Origin: Rhodocaloribacter litoris
GTDB lineage: Bacteria > Bacteroidota > Rhodothermia > Rhodothermales > ISCAR-4553
Direction: 5' to 3'
Assembly: GCF_011682235.2 (NCBI RefSeq)
Contig: NZ_CP076718.1
Coordinates: forward strand, 275,826 to 339,825
DNA length: 64,000 nucleotides
Shown in pieces: positions 17,785 through 23,352 of this stretch (position 1 is the first letter of the stretch; every line of letters begins with the position of its first letter). Both the position numbers and the translations under genes were made by a program. The notes below the pieces were generated by a model that saw only the letters and a program-made list of their open reading frames with translations, was not told the origin of the DNA and searched no databases.

Positions 17785-19002
17785 ATGGAAACGCTTTTTC
17801 CGATCACCGAGCCGACCCACCTGTTCGCCTTTCTGGCCGCCGTTCTCGGGCTGGTCTTCTGGCTGAGCACGTTGCCGCCCCTGAAGAAGCTGTTCGAATT
17901 CCTGCCGCCGGTGATCTGGGCCTATTTCGTCCCGATGATCGCCACGACGCTGGGCATCACCCCGGACAGCAGCCCCGTCTATTCGTGGATGTCGCGCTAC
18001 CTGCTGCCCTTCTCGCTCTTCCTGCTGATGATCACGGTGGATCTGCCGGCGGTGCTGCGGCTGGGCAAGACGGCGCTGTTGATGATGCTGGCCGGCACGC
18101 TCGGGATCGTCGTCGGCGGGCCGGTGGCCTACCTGATCTTCAAGGGGTTTCTGCCCGAGGACGCCTGGCAGGGGCTGGCGGCGCTCTCGGGGAGCTGGAT
18201 CGGCGGCACGGCCAACATGGTCGCCATCCAGCAGCACATCGAGTCGACGGCGGTGGTTCCCACGACGGTCGACCTCGGGCCGATCATCGTGGTGGACACG
18301 GTCGTCGGCTACGGGTGGATGGGGGTGCTCATCTTCCTGAGCGCCTTCCAGCACCGCTTCAACCGCCGGGTGCAGGCCGACACCCGCTTCGTCGACGAAC
18401 TGAACCGCAAGCTGCTGGAGCTGGACACCGCACGCCGGCCCGTGCAGATCGCCGACCTGGCGATGATCGTGGGGGTGGGCCTGGCAGCCACGGTGCTGGC
18501 CCGGCTGCTGGGCGAGGCCATCCCGCCGGTGCGCCTCGACCCCGGGGCCCCCTCGCTCATCAGCGGGACCACCTGGGCCATCCTCATCGTGGTGACGGCC
18601 GGGCTGCTGCTCTCGTTCACCCCGATGCGCACGCTGGAGCGACCCGGCGCCTCGCGCCTGGGCTACCTGGCGCTCTACCTGCTGCTGACCTCCATCGGCG
18701 CCCGCGCCGACCTGAAGGCCGTCCTCGACGCGCCCCTGTTCCTGCTCACCGGCGTCGTGTGGATCAGCATCCACGTCGCCCTCCTGTTCCTGGCGGCCCG
18801 GCTCCTGCGCGCGCCCATGTTCTTCGTGGCCACCGGCAGCATGGCCAACGTGGGCGGGGCAGCCAGCGCCCCCATCGTGGCCGAGGTGTACCTGCCGGGC
18901 ATGGCGCCGGTGGGCCTGCTCATGGCCGTGGCCGGCTACATCCTGGGCATCTACGCCGCCCTCGCCTGCGCCGAGATCCTCCGCTTCCTGAGCATGCTCT
19001 GA
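17785..19002 (+). CDS. DUF819-family membrane protein
   Basis: A 405-residue integral membrane protein with about 11-12 hydrophobic helices. Family-defining glycine-rich segments include LSGSWIGGTANMVAIQQ, VDLGPIIVVDTVVGYGW and a later FFVATGSMANVGGAASAPIVA. The two related GG-containing halves suggest an inverted-repeat transporter fold. DUF819 (YjcL-like) members have no established substrate; gluconate or keto-acid transport has been guessed only from context in other genomes. ATG at 17785 follows a 160-bp non-coding gap shared with the divergent secreted unknown. Downstream lie 375 bp without a gene, so it appears monocistronic. Confidence 0.9.
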   Translation: METLFPITEPTHLFAFLAAVLGLVFWLSTLPPLKKLFEFLPPVIWAYFVPMIATTLGITPDSSPVYSWMSRYLLPFSLFLLMITVDLPAVLRLGKTALLMMLAGTLGIVVGGPVAYLIFKGFLPEDAWQGLAALSGSWIGGTANMVAIQQHIESTAVVPTTVDLGPIIVVDTVVGYGWMGVLIFLSAFQHRFNRRVQADTRFVDELNRKLLELDTARRPVQIADLAMIVGVGLAATVLARLLGEAIPPVRLDPGAPSLISGTTWAILIVVTAGLLLSFTPMRTLERPGASRLGYLALYLLLTSIGARADLKAVLDAPLFLLTGVVWISIHVALLFLAARLLRAPMFFVATGSMANVGGAASAPIVAEVYLPGMAPVGLLMAVAGYILGIYAALACAEILRFLSML

Positions 19003-19377
19003 CCCCTTCCCCGGCGTGCCCCTTTCCCCATGGTTTCGACAAAATAACCTGTCACATTTTACACACTTCGGCAACACCCTTCTTGCCGCAAAGGCCGTTA
19101 TTACGAACGGCTTTGAGAACACAGATCACCCCCCGTCTCCGCGCCGGGCGAAACCGCACCTACCCGCCCGTGACAGGGCGGGCAAGCGATCCGGTGTTCC
19201 CCCGGCCATCCAGGCCAACGCCTGTGGCTAAACGCGTGGAATAAAATCACAACCACCCGATGGGGGGTGCTTTCCACCGTCTGCTTCTTCGAAGCCCCGT
19301 GCGCACACGCCACCGCGAAGAAGCAGACGATGCCGAGAAAGGAGAATCGAAAATAGCACATACATGGAGGCAGAAAA
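19003..19377. other. Structured gene-free region upstream of the cupredoxin/fasciclin pair
   Basis: No credible gene. It contains several inverted repeats. The first, at 19090-19114 (GCCGTT, 6-nt loop, AACGGC, then TTT), is a possible weak terminator for the DUF819 gene. The second, at 19163-19182, is CCCGCCC, a 6-nt loop and GGGCGGG. The third, at 19278-19291 and 19316-19329, is a perfect 14-bp inverted repeat (CGTCTGCTTCTTCG and its complement) with a 24-bp loop, ending 48 bp before the next start codon. A good GGAGG ribosome-binding site lies just before 19378. The A+T-richer stretch near 19230 could hold the promoter. I recognise no known riboswitch. Confidence 0.6.
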
Positions 19378-19833
19378 ATGAGAACCAAAATCTTCCCATA
19401 CACGCGCCTGCTTTCTCTCCTTCTGATACCGGCGCTCCTGCTGCTCGCTGCCTGCACCGACCGCACACCGGACGAAACGCAAAACGCGCCTTCGGGGATC
19501 GAAGTCCCTCCGCCTGCGGCGCCTCCGGTCATCCAGGCAGCCGACACGATCCAGGTGATTCTGTCGGACTATCAGATCGACATGCCCACCTCGCTGTCGC
19601 CGGGACCGGTCGTCTTCGCGGTCTACAACGAGGGCACGGTGCCCCACGCCTTTGAGGTTGAAGGCGGGGAGATGGAAGAGCGCCTGGACCCCATCGAACC
19701 GGGCGACATGCAGCACCTGTCCGTCGAGCTGGCCGCCGGACGGTACACGGTTTATTGCCCCGTCGACAACCATCGCGAGCGTGGGATGACGACCGGCCTG
19801 CTCGTAAGCGATGAGGCCCCGGGTACCCTGTAA
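19378..19833 (+). CDS. Cupredoxin-like lipoprotein
   Basis: A 151-residue exported protein. Residues 1-26 form a lipoprotein signal (LLLIPALLLLAAC, lipidated Cys26), followed by a Pro-rich spacer. The remaining ~95 residues are a cupredoxin-like beta domain with a plausible type 1 copper site: H90 in VPHAFEV and C127, H132, M137 in YCPVDNHRERGM. The protein may carry electrons or bind copper in the periplasm; that role is inferred from the ligand set. It has a strong GGAGG ribosome-binding site, unusual in this window. The fasciclin gene starts 36 bp downstream in the same direction and the pair ends at a strong terminator, so they form a two-gene operon. Confidence 0.85.
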   Translation: MRTKIFPYTRLLSLLLIPALLLLAACTDRTPDETQNAPSGIEVPPPAAPPVIQAADTIQVILSDYQIDMPTSLSPGPVVFAVYNEGTVPHAFEVEGGEMEERLDPIEPGDMQHLSVELAAGRYTVYCPVDNHRERGMTTGLLVSDEAPGTL

Positions 19834-19868
19834 TCCACAACCTTTCAACCAGATAAAAGGCACCAGTC

Positions 19869-20411
19869 ATGAAAACCCACATCATCCACCATGCCCTGCG
19901 CCCTGCCGTCCTTATCCTGATGCTGGCGCTCGTGACCCCGCTGTACCTCATGGCCCAGGAAAGGGAGCGGACCGAAGACCCCTCGCCCGCCGAACAGGCC
20001 ACCCTCATCACCACCCTGGAGGCTGAAGGCTCCTATACCCAGTTCCTCGCCCTGCTGCGCCGCGCGGGCCTGAGCAACGCCCTGAACGCCGAAGGGCCCT
20101 ACACCCTTTTCGCCCCCACGGATGAGGCCCTTGCCGAAGAGGACACGGACCGGTTTGAAACCATGGAGCCGGAGGCCCTGGCCGACTTCCTGCGCAACTA
20201 CATGGTGATGGAGGCCGTCAGCCTCGAGAAGGCCAAACAACTCGGCGCCCTGCAAACGCTCAACGGCAACACGTTGCCCGTCGAAACCGCAGAGGACGGC
20301 ACCGTGACGGTTGCCGGCGCGCCGGTGATCGCCGCGGACGTCAAGGCCGCCAACGGCATCATCCACGGCATCGGCGCCCTGATCACCCCCTCGGAGAAGC
20401 AGGAACGATAA
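19869..20411 (+). CDS. Fasciclin (FAS1)-domain exported protein
   Basis: A 180-residue protein. An N-terminal hydrophobic segment (AVLILMLALVTPLYLMAQ) looks like a cleavable signal peptide. Residues ~43-175 form a single FAS1 domain with the typical H1/H2 signatures: GPYTLFAPTDEALAEE near the start and AANGIIHGIGALITP at the end. FAS1 domains mediate adhesion or protein-protein contacts; in bacteria single-domain versions are often secreted and of unknown role. It is preceded by AAAGG and follows the cupredoxin lipoprotein gene by 36 bp, ending 27 bp before a strong hairpin terminator. A shared envelope function for the pair is inferred only from the operon. Confidence 0.92.
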   Translation: MKTHIIHHALRPAVLILMLALVTPLYLMAQERERTEDPSPAEQATLITTLEAEGSYTQFLALLRRAGLSNALNAEGPYTLFAPTDEALAEEDTDRFETMEPEALADFLRNYMVMEAVSLEKAKQLGALQTLNGNTLPVETAEDGTVTVAGAPVIAADVKAANGIIHGIGALITPSEKQER

Positions 20412-20437
20412 GCGCCCCGGCGCTTATCCGGACGAGG

Positions 20438-20474
20438 CACCCCCCGGACCGCACGGCCGGGGGGTGTTTTTTTG
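20438..20474 (+). terminator. Rho-independent terminator of the cupredoxin-fasciclin operon
   Basis: A perfect 10-bp stem, CACCCCCCGG (20438-20447) with CCGGGGGGTG (20457-20466), has a 9-nt loop and is followed by seven Ts. It lies 27 bp after the fasciclin stop. Confidence 0.9.
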
Positions 20475-20533
20475 CGATATAGCGGAGGTCATTTTTATTA
20501 AGGGCATGACCACCCTTCGCGAACGGTCCACGT

Positions 20534-20727
20534 GTAGTCGCGGATCTGGACGCGTTGCGCGTCCCGTTAGCCCGGGCGCGCCGGCGGAGAGGGGAGCGCA
20601 CCCGTGAAGGGTGCGGCTACATTGCTCCTCGAACGTACCGGGTAGCCGCGGATCTGGACGCGTTGCGCGTCCCGTTAGCCCGGGCGCGCCGGCGGAGAGA
20701 GGGCGCACCCGTGAAGGGTGCGGCTAC
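20534..20727. repeat. Two tandem copies of a hairpin-rich REP-like element
   Basis: Copy 1 is at 20534-20620 and copy 2 at 20642-20727; they are almost identical over ~86 bp. In copy 2 the ends are inverted, GTAGCCGC and GCGGCTAC. Each copy holds two internal hairpins: GGACGCG-TT-GCGCGTCC and CGCACCC-GTGAA-GGGTGCG. Apparent reading frames across it are repeat-derived and not credible genes. The layout resembles REP/BIME palindromic elements mobilised by RAYT-type transposases, though none is seen here. Confidence 0.8.
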
Positions 20728-20749
20728 ATCGCGCTGCACAACGACGCCT

Positions 20750-20929
20750 TCAATAGCATGGACCGACGCTATACTTCCCGAGTTCTTCCACATATATCCA
20801 GTGCCGGATACGCCCATCGGATTGGACTTCCCTGGCTATCGGTTCTCGTACGGCCCTCTCACACCAGGCCAGTTTGATGTAGGGACGCCCCCGGAGAACG
20901 CGTCGTTGAAAATAGGATGTTTGCTTCAT
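20750..20929 (-). pseudogene. Truncated small conserved protein (59 codons left), short reading frame
   Basis: A 59-residue reading frame starting at the ATG at 20929. Key segments are RRVLRGRPYIKLAWCE, PIAREVQSDGRIRHW and IYVEELGKY. From memory this matches a small protein family, found in many bacteria, whose members continue after the LGKY position with a second half containing TLEDG and HNAFPDR-like motifs; it is often encoded next to a DUF2283 gene. Here it stops eight residues after LGK with unrelated residues (SVGPCY). The family's second half is not found, and the duplicated REP-like element begins 22 bp beyond the stop. I therefore call it truncated, possibly a pseudogene. The local base composition is less GC-rich than its neighbours, hinting at acquisition. 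No partner gene is present. Family identification is from recall and unverified. Confidence 0.6.
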
Positions 20930-20962
20930 AGGATCGGCTGATCCGTCCTGATCTTCCTCTGG

Positions 20963-22756
20963 TCATTCCGCCCCATTCGTCGAGGCGGCGGCCAGCGCTT
21001 CGGCCTGCTCGATGAGCGCCTCGATGGCCGACAGGCCCCGGTGCCAGAAACCCGGGTCGGTCAGGTCCACCCCCAGGCGGCCGACGAGCCGGTGCGGCCA
21101 GTCCGAGCCGCCGGCCTCCAGCAGCCCGATGTACTTGTCGGCGAAGGCCGGCCCTTCCTCCCGGTAGCGGGCGTAGAGGGCCAGCACCAGCAACTCGCCG
21201 AAGGCATAGGCATAGACGTACCCCGGCGTGTGGAGGAAGTGGGGGATGTAGCTCCACCAGAAGCGGTAGTGGTCGCCCAGCGTGACGCTCCCCTGGAACA
21301 TGGCGCGCTGCGTGTCCATCCAGGCCTCGCAGAACCATTCGGGGGGCAGTTCGCCCTCGGTGCGGCGGGCGGTGTGCATCCGGTCCTCGAACCGGTTCAT
21401 GGCCACCTGCCGGAAAACCGTGGCGATGGTGTCGTCGATCTTGCCCACGAGCATCGCCAGGCGGTTGCGCGGGTCCTGTTCCTGCTGCATCAGCCGCTGG
21501 AAGACGAGCATCTCGCCGAAGACCGAGGCCGTCTCGGCGGTGGTCAGCGGGGTGTCCGCCTGGAGGACGCCCTGCTTCCGGGAGAGGTACTGGTGCACCC
21601 CGTGCCCGAGTTCGTGGGCCAGCGTCTGCACGTCCCGGATCTTGCCGGTGTAGTTCATCAAGATGTAAGGGTGGGCGCTGGGGACGGCTCCGTGGCTGAA
21701 GGCGCCGCCCCGCTTGTTCGGCGCCAGCGCCGCGTCGATCCACCGCTTCTCGAAGAACTGTTCGACGATCTCGCCCAGACGCGGGTGGAAGTCGGCATAG
21801 GCGGCCTGCACCAGCTCGCGGGCCGCGTCCCAGTCGTACCGGGTGTCGGCCTCGCCGACCGGGGCATAGCGGTCGTAGTCGAACAGCTCGTCGAGGCCGA
21901 GGAGGCGGCGCTTGAGGCGGTAGAAGCGGGCGACGAGATCGTACCGGCCGGTGACGGCTTCGATGAGGGCTTGCACCATCTCGTCTTCGACCTCGTTTTC
22001 GAGGTTGCGGGCGGCGAGCCAGTGCGGATAGCCCCGGAGGCGGTCGTCCGAGGCCTTGTCGGCCAGGATCGTGTTGAAGATGAAGGTGAGCGGGCGGAGG
22101 TTTGCCTCCAGCCCCCCGGTGAAGGCCAGCGCCGCCGTGCGCCGGACCTCGCGGTCCGGCTCGTAGAGCTTTGCCAGCACCTCCTGCTGCGTCATCTGCC
22201 GCCCGTCGAGCGTGAAGCGCATGGCCCCGAGTGTCTCGTCGAAGAACCGGTTCCACGCCCCCCGCCCGGTGACGGCCTTCTCGGAGAGGATCTTCTCCTC
22301 GGGTTCGGAGAGCAGGTGCCGGCGGTGCAGGCGCTCGAGTTCCAGGTAGTGGCGGTAGGTCGCCAGGAGCGGATCGGCCAGCAACGCCTCGGCACGGTCG
22401 TCGTCCACGGCCGCCCATTCGAGGCGGAAGAAGATGAGGCGCTGCGCGATCTGCGTGTAGGCCTCACGCACCTTCTGCAGGAGCGCCCCGCGGGCGGGGT
22501 CGCCGGTGTCGGTGGACCAGTACAGGTAGGCGTAGGTGTAGGCACGGCCCAGCCGGTCGTGCAACCGCTCGTAGGCGACCAGCGCCCCGGCCAGGCCCCC
22601 GGCGTCCAGCCCGGCGACCCGGCCGCGATAGCGATCTTCGAAGGCTCCGGCCTCCTCGGCGGCGGTTTCCAGATCCCGATCCAGCGCCGCCTGGTCGGTA
22701 TAAAGGTCGGTCAGGTCCCAGTGAACCGATTCGGCTCCGGTGACAGTCGTCTCCAT
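20963..22756 (-). CDS. pepF: M3-family oligoendopeptidase F
   Basis: A 597-residue cytoplasmic zinc peptidase of the M3B (PepF) family, which degrades oligopeptides of roughly 7-17 residues. The zinc site HELGHGVHQ begins at H381, with the downstream glutamate ligand expected in TAETASVFGE. The C-terminal HTPGYVYAYAFGELL segment, which contacts substrate, is conserved. Length fits the family (~600). The start METTVTGAES at 22756 is chosen; ATG at 22786 would add ten residues. Upstream is a 194-bp gap shared with the divergent ytxJ gene. Downstream is the truncated small gene on the same strand, only 33 bp away. Confidence 0.94.
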   Translation of the reverse strand: METTVTGAESVHWDLTDLYTDQAALDRDLETAAEEAGAFEDRYRGRVAGLDAGGLAGALVAYERLHDRLGRAYTYAYLYWSTDTGDPARGALLQKVREAYTQIAQRLIFFRLEWAAVDDDRAEALLADPLLATYRHYLELERLHRRHLLSEPEEKILSEKAVTGRGAWNRFFDETLGAMRFTLDGRQMTQQEVLAKLYEPDREVRRTAALAFTGGLEANLRPLTFIFNTILADKASDDRLRGYPHWLAARNLENEVEDEMVQALIEAVTGRYDLVARFYRLKRRLLGLDELFDYDRYAPVGEADTRYDWDAARELVQAAYADFHPRLGEIVEQFFEKRWIDAALAPNKRGGAFSHGAVPSAHPYILMNYTGKIRDVQTLAHELGHGVHQYLSRKQGVLQADTPLTTAETASVFGEMLVFQRLMQQEQDPRNRLAMLVGKIDDTIATVFRQVAMNRFEDRMHTARRTEGELPPEWFCEAWMDTQRAMFQGSVTLGDHYRFWWSYIPHFLHTPGYVYAYAFGELLVLALYARYREEGPAFADKYIGLLEAGGSDWPHRLVGRLGVDLTDPGFWHRGLSAIEALIEQAEALAAASTNGAE

Positions 22757-22950
22757 CGTGTCGATTTGCTCCCGTTTTGTTTGCATGTGTGCGGCGTTGG
22801 CCGCCCGGGATACCCGCACCTGAAACGCAGGCGCGCGTGGTGAAACCAACGTGCACGTCATTTGTTGTCGCCCGCCGGGCCGGGAACCCGTTCCTCTGCC
22901 TGCCGTGAACCTTTCCGCCGTCGTCCTGTACCACGGACGCACACGAGCCG

Positions 22951-23352
22951 ATGATGCTGAAAAAGCTACGCGCCACGTTGCAACAAGCCTTTTCACAGCC
23001 GGACCGGCTACACCCGCTGGAAGACGAAGCGGGGCTCGACGCCGCGCTGGACCGGTCCCGAACCCGGCCGGTCGTGCTGTTCAAGCACAGCACCTGGTGC
23101 GGCACGAGCCTGGTGGCACGGCGGGAGATGCAGCGGCTCACCGAAACACATGACGTCCCGGTCTACGAGATCGTGGTCCAGGTGGCCCGCCCGCTTTCGA
23201 ACCTCGTCGCCGCACGCTTCGGCATCCGGCACGAATCCCCGCAGGCCATCGTGCTCGTCGACGCGCAGCCGGTGTACCACGCCTCGCACGGCGACGTCCG
23301 GGCGGACACGCTGCGCCGGATCCTCGAACCCTATTCCCCAACCTCGCGCTGA
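22951..23352 (+). CDS. ytxJ: Bacillithiol-associated redox protein YtxJ (monothiol bacilliredoxin-like)
   Basis: A 133-residue thioredoxin-fold protein. The active-site segment VVLFKHSTWCGTS carries a single cysteine (C50) at the position used by YtxJ/BrxC, and QAIVLVDAQPVYHASHG is the typical cis-Pro and C-terminal strand region. Family members reduce bacillithiol-mixed disulfides, so its presence suggests that this organism makes bacillithiol. The start is ATG at 22951 or the adjacent ATG at 22954. The TlpA-like thioredoxin gene begins 7 bp after its stop in the same direction, forming a thiol-redox operon that ends at a hairpin terminator. Confidence 0.9.
   Translation: MMLKKLRATLQQAFSQPDRLHPLEDEAGLDAALDRSRTRPVVLFKHSTWCGTSLVARREMQRLTETHDVPVYEIVVQVARPLSNLVAARFGIRHESPQAIVLVDAQPVYHASHGDVRADTLRRILEPYSPTSR

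What the first reader, a model, noticed from the sequence alone, without database searches (positions are those of the whole stretch)
20750..20929. Truncated small conserved gene next to a duplicated REP-like element
A 59-codon frame carries the first half of what I recall as a widespread small protein family often paired with DUF2283, possibly a toxin-antitoxin-like unit. It ends abruptly where the repeat array begins 22 bp away, in a less GC-rich patch. The repeat may have caused the truncation.
Basis: partly seen in the sequence, partly recalled or inferred. Interest (0 to 1): 0.5.

Follow-up and report, generated by a model that had tools for sequence, protein, structure and literature searches.

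The report
Toxin-like gene cut by mobile repeat
A small toxin-like gene here has lost its second half and its usual partner gene exactly where a short mobile DNA repeat, present in dozens of copies in this genome, begins; the pieces are new examples of known kinds, and the event looks like ordinary gene decay.

Summary
The 59-codon frame (20750-20929, minus) carries codons 1-52 of a real family: 32 loci elsewhere, 30 with a DUF2283 gene directly downstream. Intact members run some 20-30 residues further; 29 of 32 matches stop at residue 53. The last codons (YSVGPCY, stop) are the right end of a dispersed element at 20478-20773 with imperfect terminal inverted repeats, found at 40 or more places in this genome. 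In 22 of 26 delimited copies the flanking dinucleotides are equal (20 TA/TA, one TC/TC, one TT/TT). It therefore looks like a MITE with a 2-bp target duplication, here at the TA of the conserved Tyr53 codon. It is not a REP in the RAYT sense: no Y1 transposase was found. The missing half and the DUF2283 partner were not found beyond the element or elsewhere in the genome; the only DUF2283 gene has its own DUF4258 partner. So a deletion or recombination must have followed the insertion. The intact family is predicted to have a BrnT/RelE-like fold, at middling scores.

The parts
20774..20929 (-). Native 5' part (codons 1-52) of a small toxin-like gene of the family that precedes DUF2283 genes
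   Evidence: Homology; GC 54.5% against 68.1% for the window
20750..20773 (-). Codons 53-59 and the stop codon of the frame, read out of the right end of the mobile element (the TA at 20772-20773 may be native target DNA)
   Evidence: Translation across the junction; right ends of other copies
20478..20773 (+). MITE-like dispersed element, flanking TA dinucleotides included
   Evidence: Boundaries shared with other copies; end motif 54 hits against 1 for the reversed control
20480..20503 (+). Left terminal inverted repeat (imperfect)
   Evidence: Alignment of the two ends
20747..20771 (-). Right terminal inverted repeat (imperfect)
   Evidence: Alignment of the two ends
20531..20625 (+). First internal palindrome-rich module
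   Evidence: Repeats D1 and D2; module positions
20639..20732 (+). Second internal module, 95-97% like the first in its two repeated stretches
   Evidence: Repeats D1 and D2; module positions
19869..20411 (+). Fasciclin-domain gene (PF02469). It and a terminator-like hairpin with a T run (about 20439-20473, seen by eye) fill the DNA just left of the element, so no remnant of the cut gene was seen there
   Evidence: sequence
20963..22996 (-). M3-family oligopeptidase gene (frame as listed; the true start is probably inside), 33 bp upstream of the cut gene and on the same strand

Best explanation
A toxin-antitoxin-like pair (BrnT/RelE-fold protein plus DUF2283), probably acquired horizontally, once lay downstream of the M3 oligopeptidase gene. 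A non-autonomous TIR element (MITE) with 2-bp, mostly TA, target choice inserted at the TA of the Tyr53 codon. Shown: the coincidence of gene breakpoint and element end, the element-coded tail, and the failure of searches to find the rest in the genome. Inferred: a following deletion, either next to the element or by recombination with a second copy beside the fasciclin gene, removed the last two beta strands of the toxin-like protein and the DUF2283 gene in one step. That would leave neither a working toxin nor a need for an antitoxin. The 59-residue product is probably non-functional. The element was probably moved by a transposase of the IS630/Tc1-mariner kind (inferred).
For: Intact homologues go on for some 20-30 residues and 30 of 32 loci have DUF2283 next to the gene. 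29 of 32 matches end at residue 53 = 20771-20773, and the element ends at 20773. Tyr53 is nearly invariant in intact members, so the target would be the TA of its codon. The element's right end is shared by dispersed copies. Equal flanking dinucleotides in 22 of 26 delimited copies. Own genome: one match to the frame, one DUF2283 gene with its own DUF4258 partner, no credible match for the lost part. Twelve PF13358 (IS630-type) matches in the genome, one family with ends TATAGCG. In the predicted fold of the intact relative, strands 52-58 and 64-71 lie almost wholly in the lost part.
Against: No empty site or intact copy at this very locus was found. The G001 contig with the oligopeptidase breaks off inside that gene, and none of the 29 relative loci compared shows the pair near that gene. 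The match of L004 runs to residue 56 rather than 53. The element's ends do not tell insertion plus deletion from recombination: the left end has 8 differences from consensus and the right end 1, but other copies range as widely. The TIR shares only TATAGCG with the IS630-type element found, so the transposase link is weak. Four of 26 copies have unequal flanks, and TA at most ends could belong to the TIR; only two copies with other dinucleotides argue for duplication.
Confidence: 0.85

Rival explanations
1. The junction arose by homologous recombination between two element copies, one in the gene and one beside the fasciclin terminator, deleting all between them (a specific form of the main explanation).
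For: Forty or more copies offer substrates; a single element remains with unrelated flanks; the left end diverges more than the right (8 and 1 differences).
Against: The two-module form is shared with the copy at 4091615 (93% over the whole length), so it may have arrived whole; left ends vary in general.
Confidence: 0.4
2. The gene fragment arrived already broken, on a larger piece of DNA, and no intact pair ever stood here.
For: Low GC of the fragment; none of the 29 relative loci compared has the pair near the oligopeptidase gene (two of them have no usable downstream flank).
Against: Ten of ten columns invariant in intact members are kept in the native part and no stop or frameshift is seen, which suggests a young break here; the fragment occurs once in the genome.
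Confidence: 0.15
3. The 59-residue protein is a working short variant, for example a regulator or decoy, rather than debris.
For: Open frame with conserved N-terminal residues; same strand and 33 bp behind the oligopeptidase gene.
Against: Lacks the last two of four beta strands and the conserved LRVVT and NAFPDR segments; no intact homologue of 59 residues was seen among the loci read; the tail is element DNA.
Confidence: 0.05

Closest known systems
DUF4258 (PF14076) with DUF2283 (PF10049) or zinc-finger (MqsA/YgiT-like) partners
   Same: Small protein, same order with a DUF2283 gene downstream, similar profile over 49 columns (hhalign probability 86.8); own-genome example at C1:933692-934071
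   Different: 0 of 24 intact members reach the Pfam model, and the PF14076 search lists none of the three homologues
BrnT (PDB 3u97) and other BECR-fold toxins
   Same: Predicted fold of two helices then four strands; best matches 7vd7 Z 7.9 and 3u97 Z 7.0; all 11 rows with Z of 5 or more come from entries on toxin-antitoxin, contact-dependent inhibition, colicin or sequence-specific ribonuclease
   Different: Sequence identity 7-18% in those rows; Foldseek has no match at E 0.001 or better and its list is mixed with unrelated beta proteins; partner is DUF2283; activity untested
Correia/NEMIS and RUP, TA-flanked bacterial MITEs; RUP linked to IS630-Spn1 (passages of PMC2229807)
   Same: Short, no transposase gene, terminal inverted repeats, 5'-TA at the ends, target duplication
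   Different: The window copy is 65% GC, not A+T rich; copies are 95-526 bp with 0-5 internal modules; no sequence comparison with them was run
BrickBuilt MITE of Porphyromonas gingivalis (abstract and section list of PMC4596501)
   Same: MITE with tandem internal units between fixed ends
   Different: BrickBuilt units are 23 nt and the element is always intergenic; here units are spaced 80-108 nt in most multi-module copies (156 in one), and one copy ends a gene

Membership tests
MITE (non-autonomous TIR element) | Terminal inverted repeats | tested here: met
   Imperfect TIRs TATAGCG(GA/TT)GGTC... (alignment); motif 54 hits against 1 in the reversed control
MITE (non-autonomous TIR element) | Target-site duplication | tested here: met
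   22 of 26 delimited copies have equal flanking dinucleotides, 20 of them TA; 4 are unequal. TA alone could be part of the TIR; the TC/TC and TT/TT copies argue against that
MITE (non-autonomous TIR element) | Many copies, no transposase gene inside | tested here: met
   40 places by my merging of the 49 matches (40 of 76 candidates scored); lengths 95-526 bp in 26 copies, too short for a transposase gene
MITE (non-autonomous TIR element) | Shares TIRs with an autonomous parent | tested here: inconclusive
   The 1046-bp IS630-type element shares only TATAGCG at its ends
REP / BIME with RAYT | REP-associated Y1 tyrosine transposase in the genome | tested here: not met
   PF01797: 0 matches at E 0.01 in the own genome; rings in 6 of 14 control genomes
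REP / BIME with RAYT | Short palindromic units, often in tandem | tested here: met
   Internal modules with palindromes, 0-5 per element; whole element folds at z -3.6
DUF4258 (PF14076) | Pfam model above its cut-off | tested here: not met
   0 of 24 intact members match; window frame no match
DUF4258 (PF14076) | Profile similarity | tested here: inconclusive
   hhalign probability 86.8 over 49 columns against ten DUF4258 sequences
BECR-fold type II toxin | BECR fold | tested here: inconclusive
   Z up to 7.9, under the value of 8 below which the tool advises caution
BECR-fold type II toxin | Adjacent partner gene | tested here: met
   DUF2283 downstream in 30 of 32 loci; missing in the window itself
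BECR-fold type II toxin | Growth inhibition relieved by the partner | not testable with these tools
   Needs an experiment

The most novel reading that the evidence does not exclude
The intact family is an undescribed BECR-fold toxin family with DUF2283 as its antitoxin, and a modular TA-targeting MITE removes such modules safely by taking the toxin's second half and the antitoxin in one deletion.
Probability: 0.35. Interest if true: 0.5.

Novelty: new member of a known kind. Interest (0 to 1): 0.3.

Why it matters
It gives a base-exact case of a MITE ending a toxin-like gene, and points to a widespread protein pair whose first partner matches no Pfam or NCBIfam model convincingly. No paper in the held library of open-licence papers names DUF2283. 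A growth test would settle whether the pair is a toxin-antitoxin module. In itself the locus looks like ordinary gene decay.

Tried and rejected
Families: the window frame in Pfam and NCBIfam, nothing; 24 intact members in NCBIfam, Pfam and PADLOC, only single-member matches at E 0.042, 0.051 and 0.13, taken as chance. PHROGs was not searched. PDB by sequence profile: 0 matches at E 1. Foldseek against the PDB: none at E 0.001 or better. Rfam at 19300-21100: none. tRNA genes in the window: none.

Lost half elsewhere in the own genome: only a 13-residue match at E 1.76. Ancestral locus by the oligopeptidase gene in 40 genomes, own included: 36 matched. Loci from 29 of the 35 matching relatives were compared with a family protein and a DUF2283 protein; none matched. 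Two of the 29 (L128 from G001 and L145) have no usable downstream flank, and six matching relatives were not fetched. Chimerism of the element by comparing its ends: undecided. Empty form of an outer TTGACANGGGTAGG repeat: none in the loci held.

Rows dropped: the 26 delimited copies come from 32 pairings. Five overlapping duplicates were merged, one weak pairing (973767, also TA-flanked) was dropped, and the ends of four copies were set by hand to the adjoining motif. The 40 places are my merging of the 49 matches, where 40 of 76 candidates were scored, so the number is a lower bound. Alignment A1 leaves out L023, L025, L026, L030, L033 and L036; A2 also leaves out the window, L014, L016, L020, L024 and L028.

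Literature: searches. Passages of PMC2229807 and PMC11980606 were read, and the abstract and section list of PMC4596501. The link of a TA target to IS630/Tc1-mariner and the meaning of RAYT are partly recalled.

Full report
The frame. ORF 20750-20929 on the minus strand has 59 codons plus stop. No Pfam or NCBIfam model matches it. A scan of genome contigs found 32 loci encoding relatives, and 4 of 40 genomes, own included, have a match. Of the 32 matches 29 end at residue 53, L004 at 56, L030 at 47 and L033 at 32. The unbroken genes run to 73-83 residues counted from the start of the match. Exceptions read: L026 has a stop at codon 6, L030 is broken at a similar place and followed by a different small gene, L033 is a short weak match. 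L036, from a near genome, looks frameshifted.

Conservation. In 24 intact members 19 columns are invariant; ten lie in residues 1-52 and the window keeps all ten, nine lie in the part the window has lost.

The partner. A DUF2283 protein from L003 scores PF10049 at 4.5e-18. By tblastn with it, 30 of 32 loci have a DUF2283-like gene 218-257 nt after the start of the match to the family gene; L030 and L033 do not. The three loci from near genomes have one too. The own genome gave a single DUF2283 match, at C1:933692-933835, preceded by a DUF4258 gene (PF14076, E 4.4e-14). The window's gene therefore has no partner left that I could find.

The break. Codon 53 lies at 20771-20773. The dispersed element ends at 20773 with its flanking TA. 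Read on the minus strand, the frame crosses into the element and ends with YSVGPCY and a stop.

The element. A search of the own genome with 20500-20960 gave 49 matches, which I merge into 40 places; 40 of 76 candidates were scored. The motif TATAGCGNNGGTC occurs 54 times against 1 for the reversed control. Of 26 delimited copies, 20 are flanked by TA on both sides, one by TC/TC and one by TT/TT; four are unequal (TA/GA, GA/TA, TC/TA, TG/TA). With their flanking dinucleotides the copies are 95-526 bp and hold 0 to 5 palindromic modules; the window copy has two. As RNA the window copy folds at z -3.6. Among 39 relatives one, G008, gave one match; at most 18 candidates a genome were scored. No Y1 transposase was found in the genome, while the search rings in 6 of 14 controls, so it is not a REP/RAYT system. 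Twelve DDE_3 matches exist. One family, five copies of 1046 bp, has ends TATAGCGCTAC, and one of its copies sits at the end of a MITE copy, but the shared end is only TATAGCG.

What was lost. Left of the element is the end of the fasciclin gene and a terminator-like hairpin seen by eye, not the rest of the cut gene. A search with the C-terminal part of the G001 homologue gave only a 13-residue match at E 1.76. So insertion was followed by loss of DNA. Adjacent deletion and recombination between copies cannot be told apart.

The intact protein. AlphaFold2 on a 24-row alignment gives pLDDT 96.7 with two helices and four strands. Foldseek finds nothing at E 0.001 or better, and its list mixes toxin entries with unrelated beta proteins. 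The structural aligner's best are 7vd7 (Z 7.9) and BrnT 3u97 (Z 7.0). All 11 rows with Z of 5 or more come from entries on toxin-antitoxin, contact-dependent inhibition, colicin or sequence-specific ribonuclease; which chain is the toxin was not checked row by row. The tool warns that Z under 8 may mean only a common arrangement. Against ten DUF4258 sequences the profile comparison gives probability 86.8 over 49 columns. DUF4258 is listed among BECR-fold toxin families, activity unknown, in PMC11980606 (passages). Of 11 DUF4258 loci read, by my eye six are followed by a DUF2283-like frame and three by a frame with CxxC motifs. The toxin reading is therefore inferred, not shown.

Surroundings. 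The fragment is 54.5% GC in a 68.1% GC window, which suits an acquired gene. The oligopeptidase gene matched in 36 of 40 genomes, own included. In four relatives (L136, L137, L151, L152), by sequence likeness seen by eye, a gene like the window's DUF819 gene (17785-19002) converges on it. None of the 29 relative loci compared holds the pair; two of them lack a downstream flank. No intact state of this locus was found.

Verdict. The finding is a truncated toxin-like gene whose end is a MITE: known kinds, new members.

Noticed in passing
G000:C1 944787-945242, 3834542-3834978, 4305049-4305270, 2328964, 4091916, 2443400: Some copies of the element sit inside or beside a second repeat with ends TTGACA(A/G)GGGTAGGT; 9 motif hits, 0 in the reversed control. 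The hit at 2443400 has no element copy beside it in the stretch printed.
   Followed up: partly
L162 (G000:C1 near 1710659-1711724): A 1046-bp IS630-type element is inserted at the TA of a MITE end, a nested insertion.
   Followed up: partly
L030 (2854-3012): A cyanobacterial copy of the family gene is also broken at a similar place and is followed by a BrnT-looking gene instead of DUF2283 (the name BrnT is from my reading, no family search).
   Followed up: no
L025 and L030, start of the gene: Both cyanobacterial copies carry an in-frame insert of about 15 residues (RGGCVVLRRKSNHVV) near the N-terminus.
   Followed up: no
L067 (G000:C1 around 932200-935300): Near the own DUF4258-DUF2283 pair a translated stretch (SASVMERYGVVDDRRWRRPATGRPARHRIA) appears twice, a local duplication.
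   Followed up: no
G000:C1:903546-903758: A second DUF4258 gene in the own genome is followed by a frame with CxxC motifs, like an MqsA/YgiT-type partner by eye.
   Followed up: no
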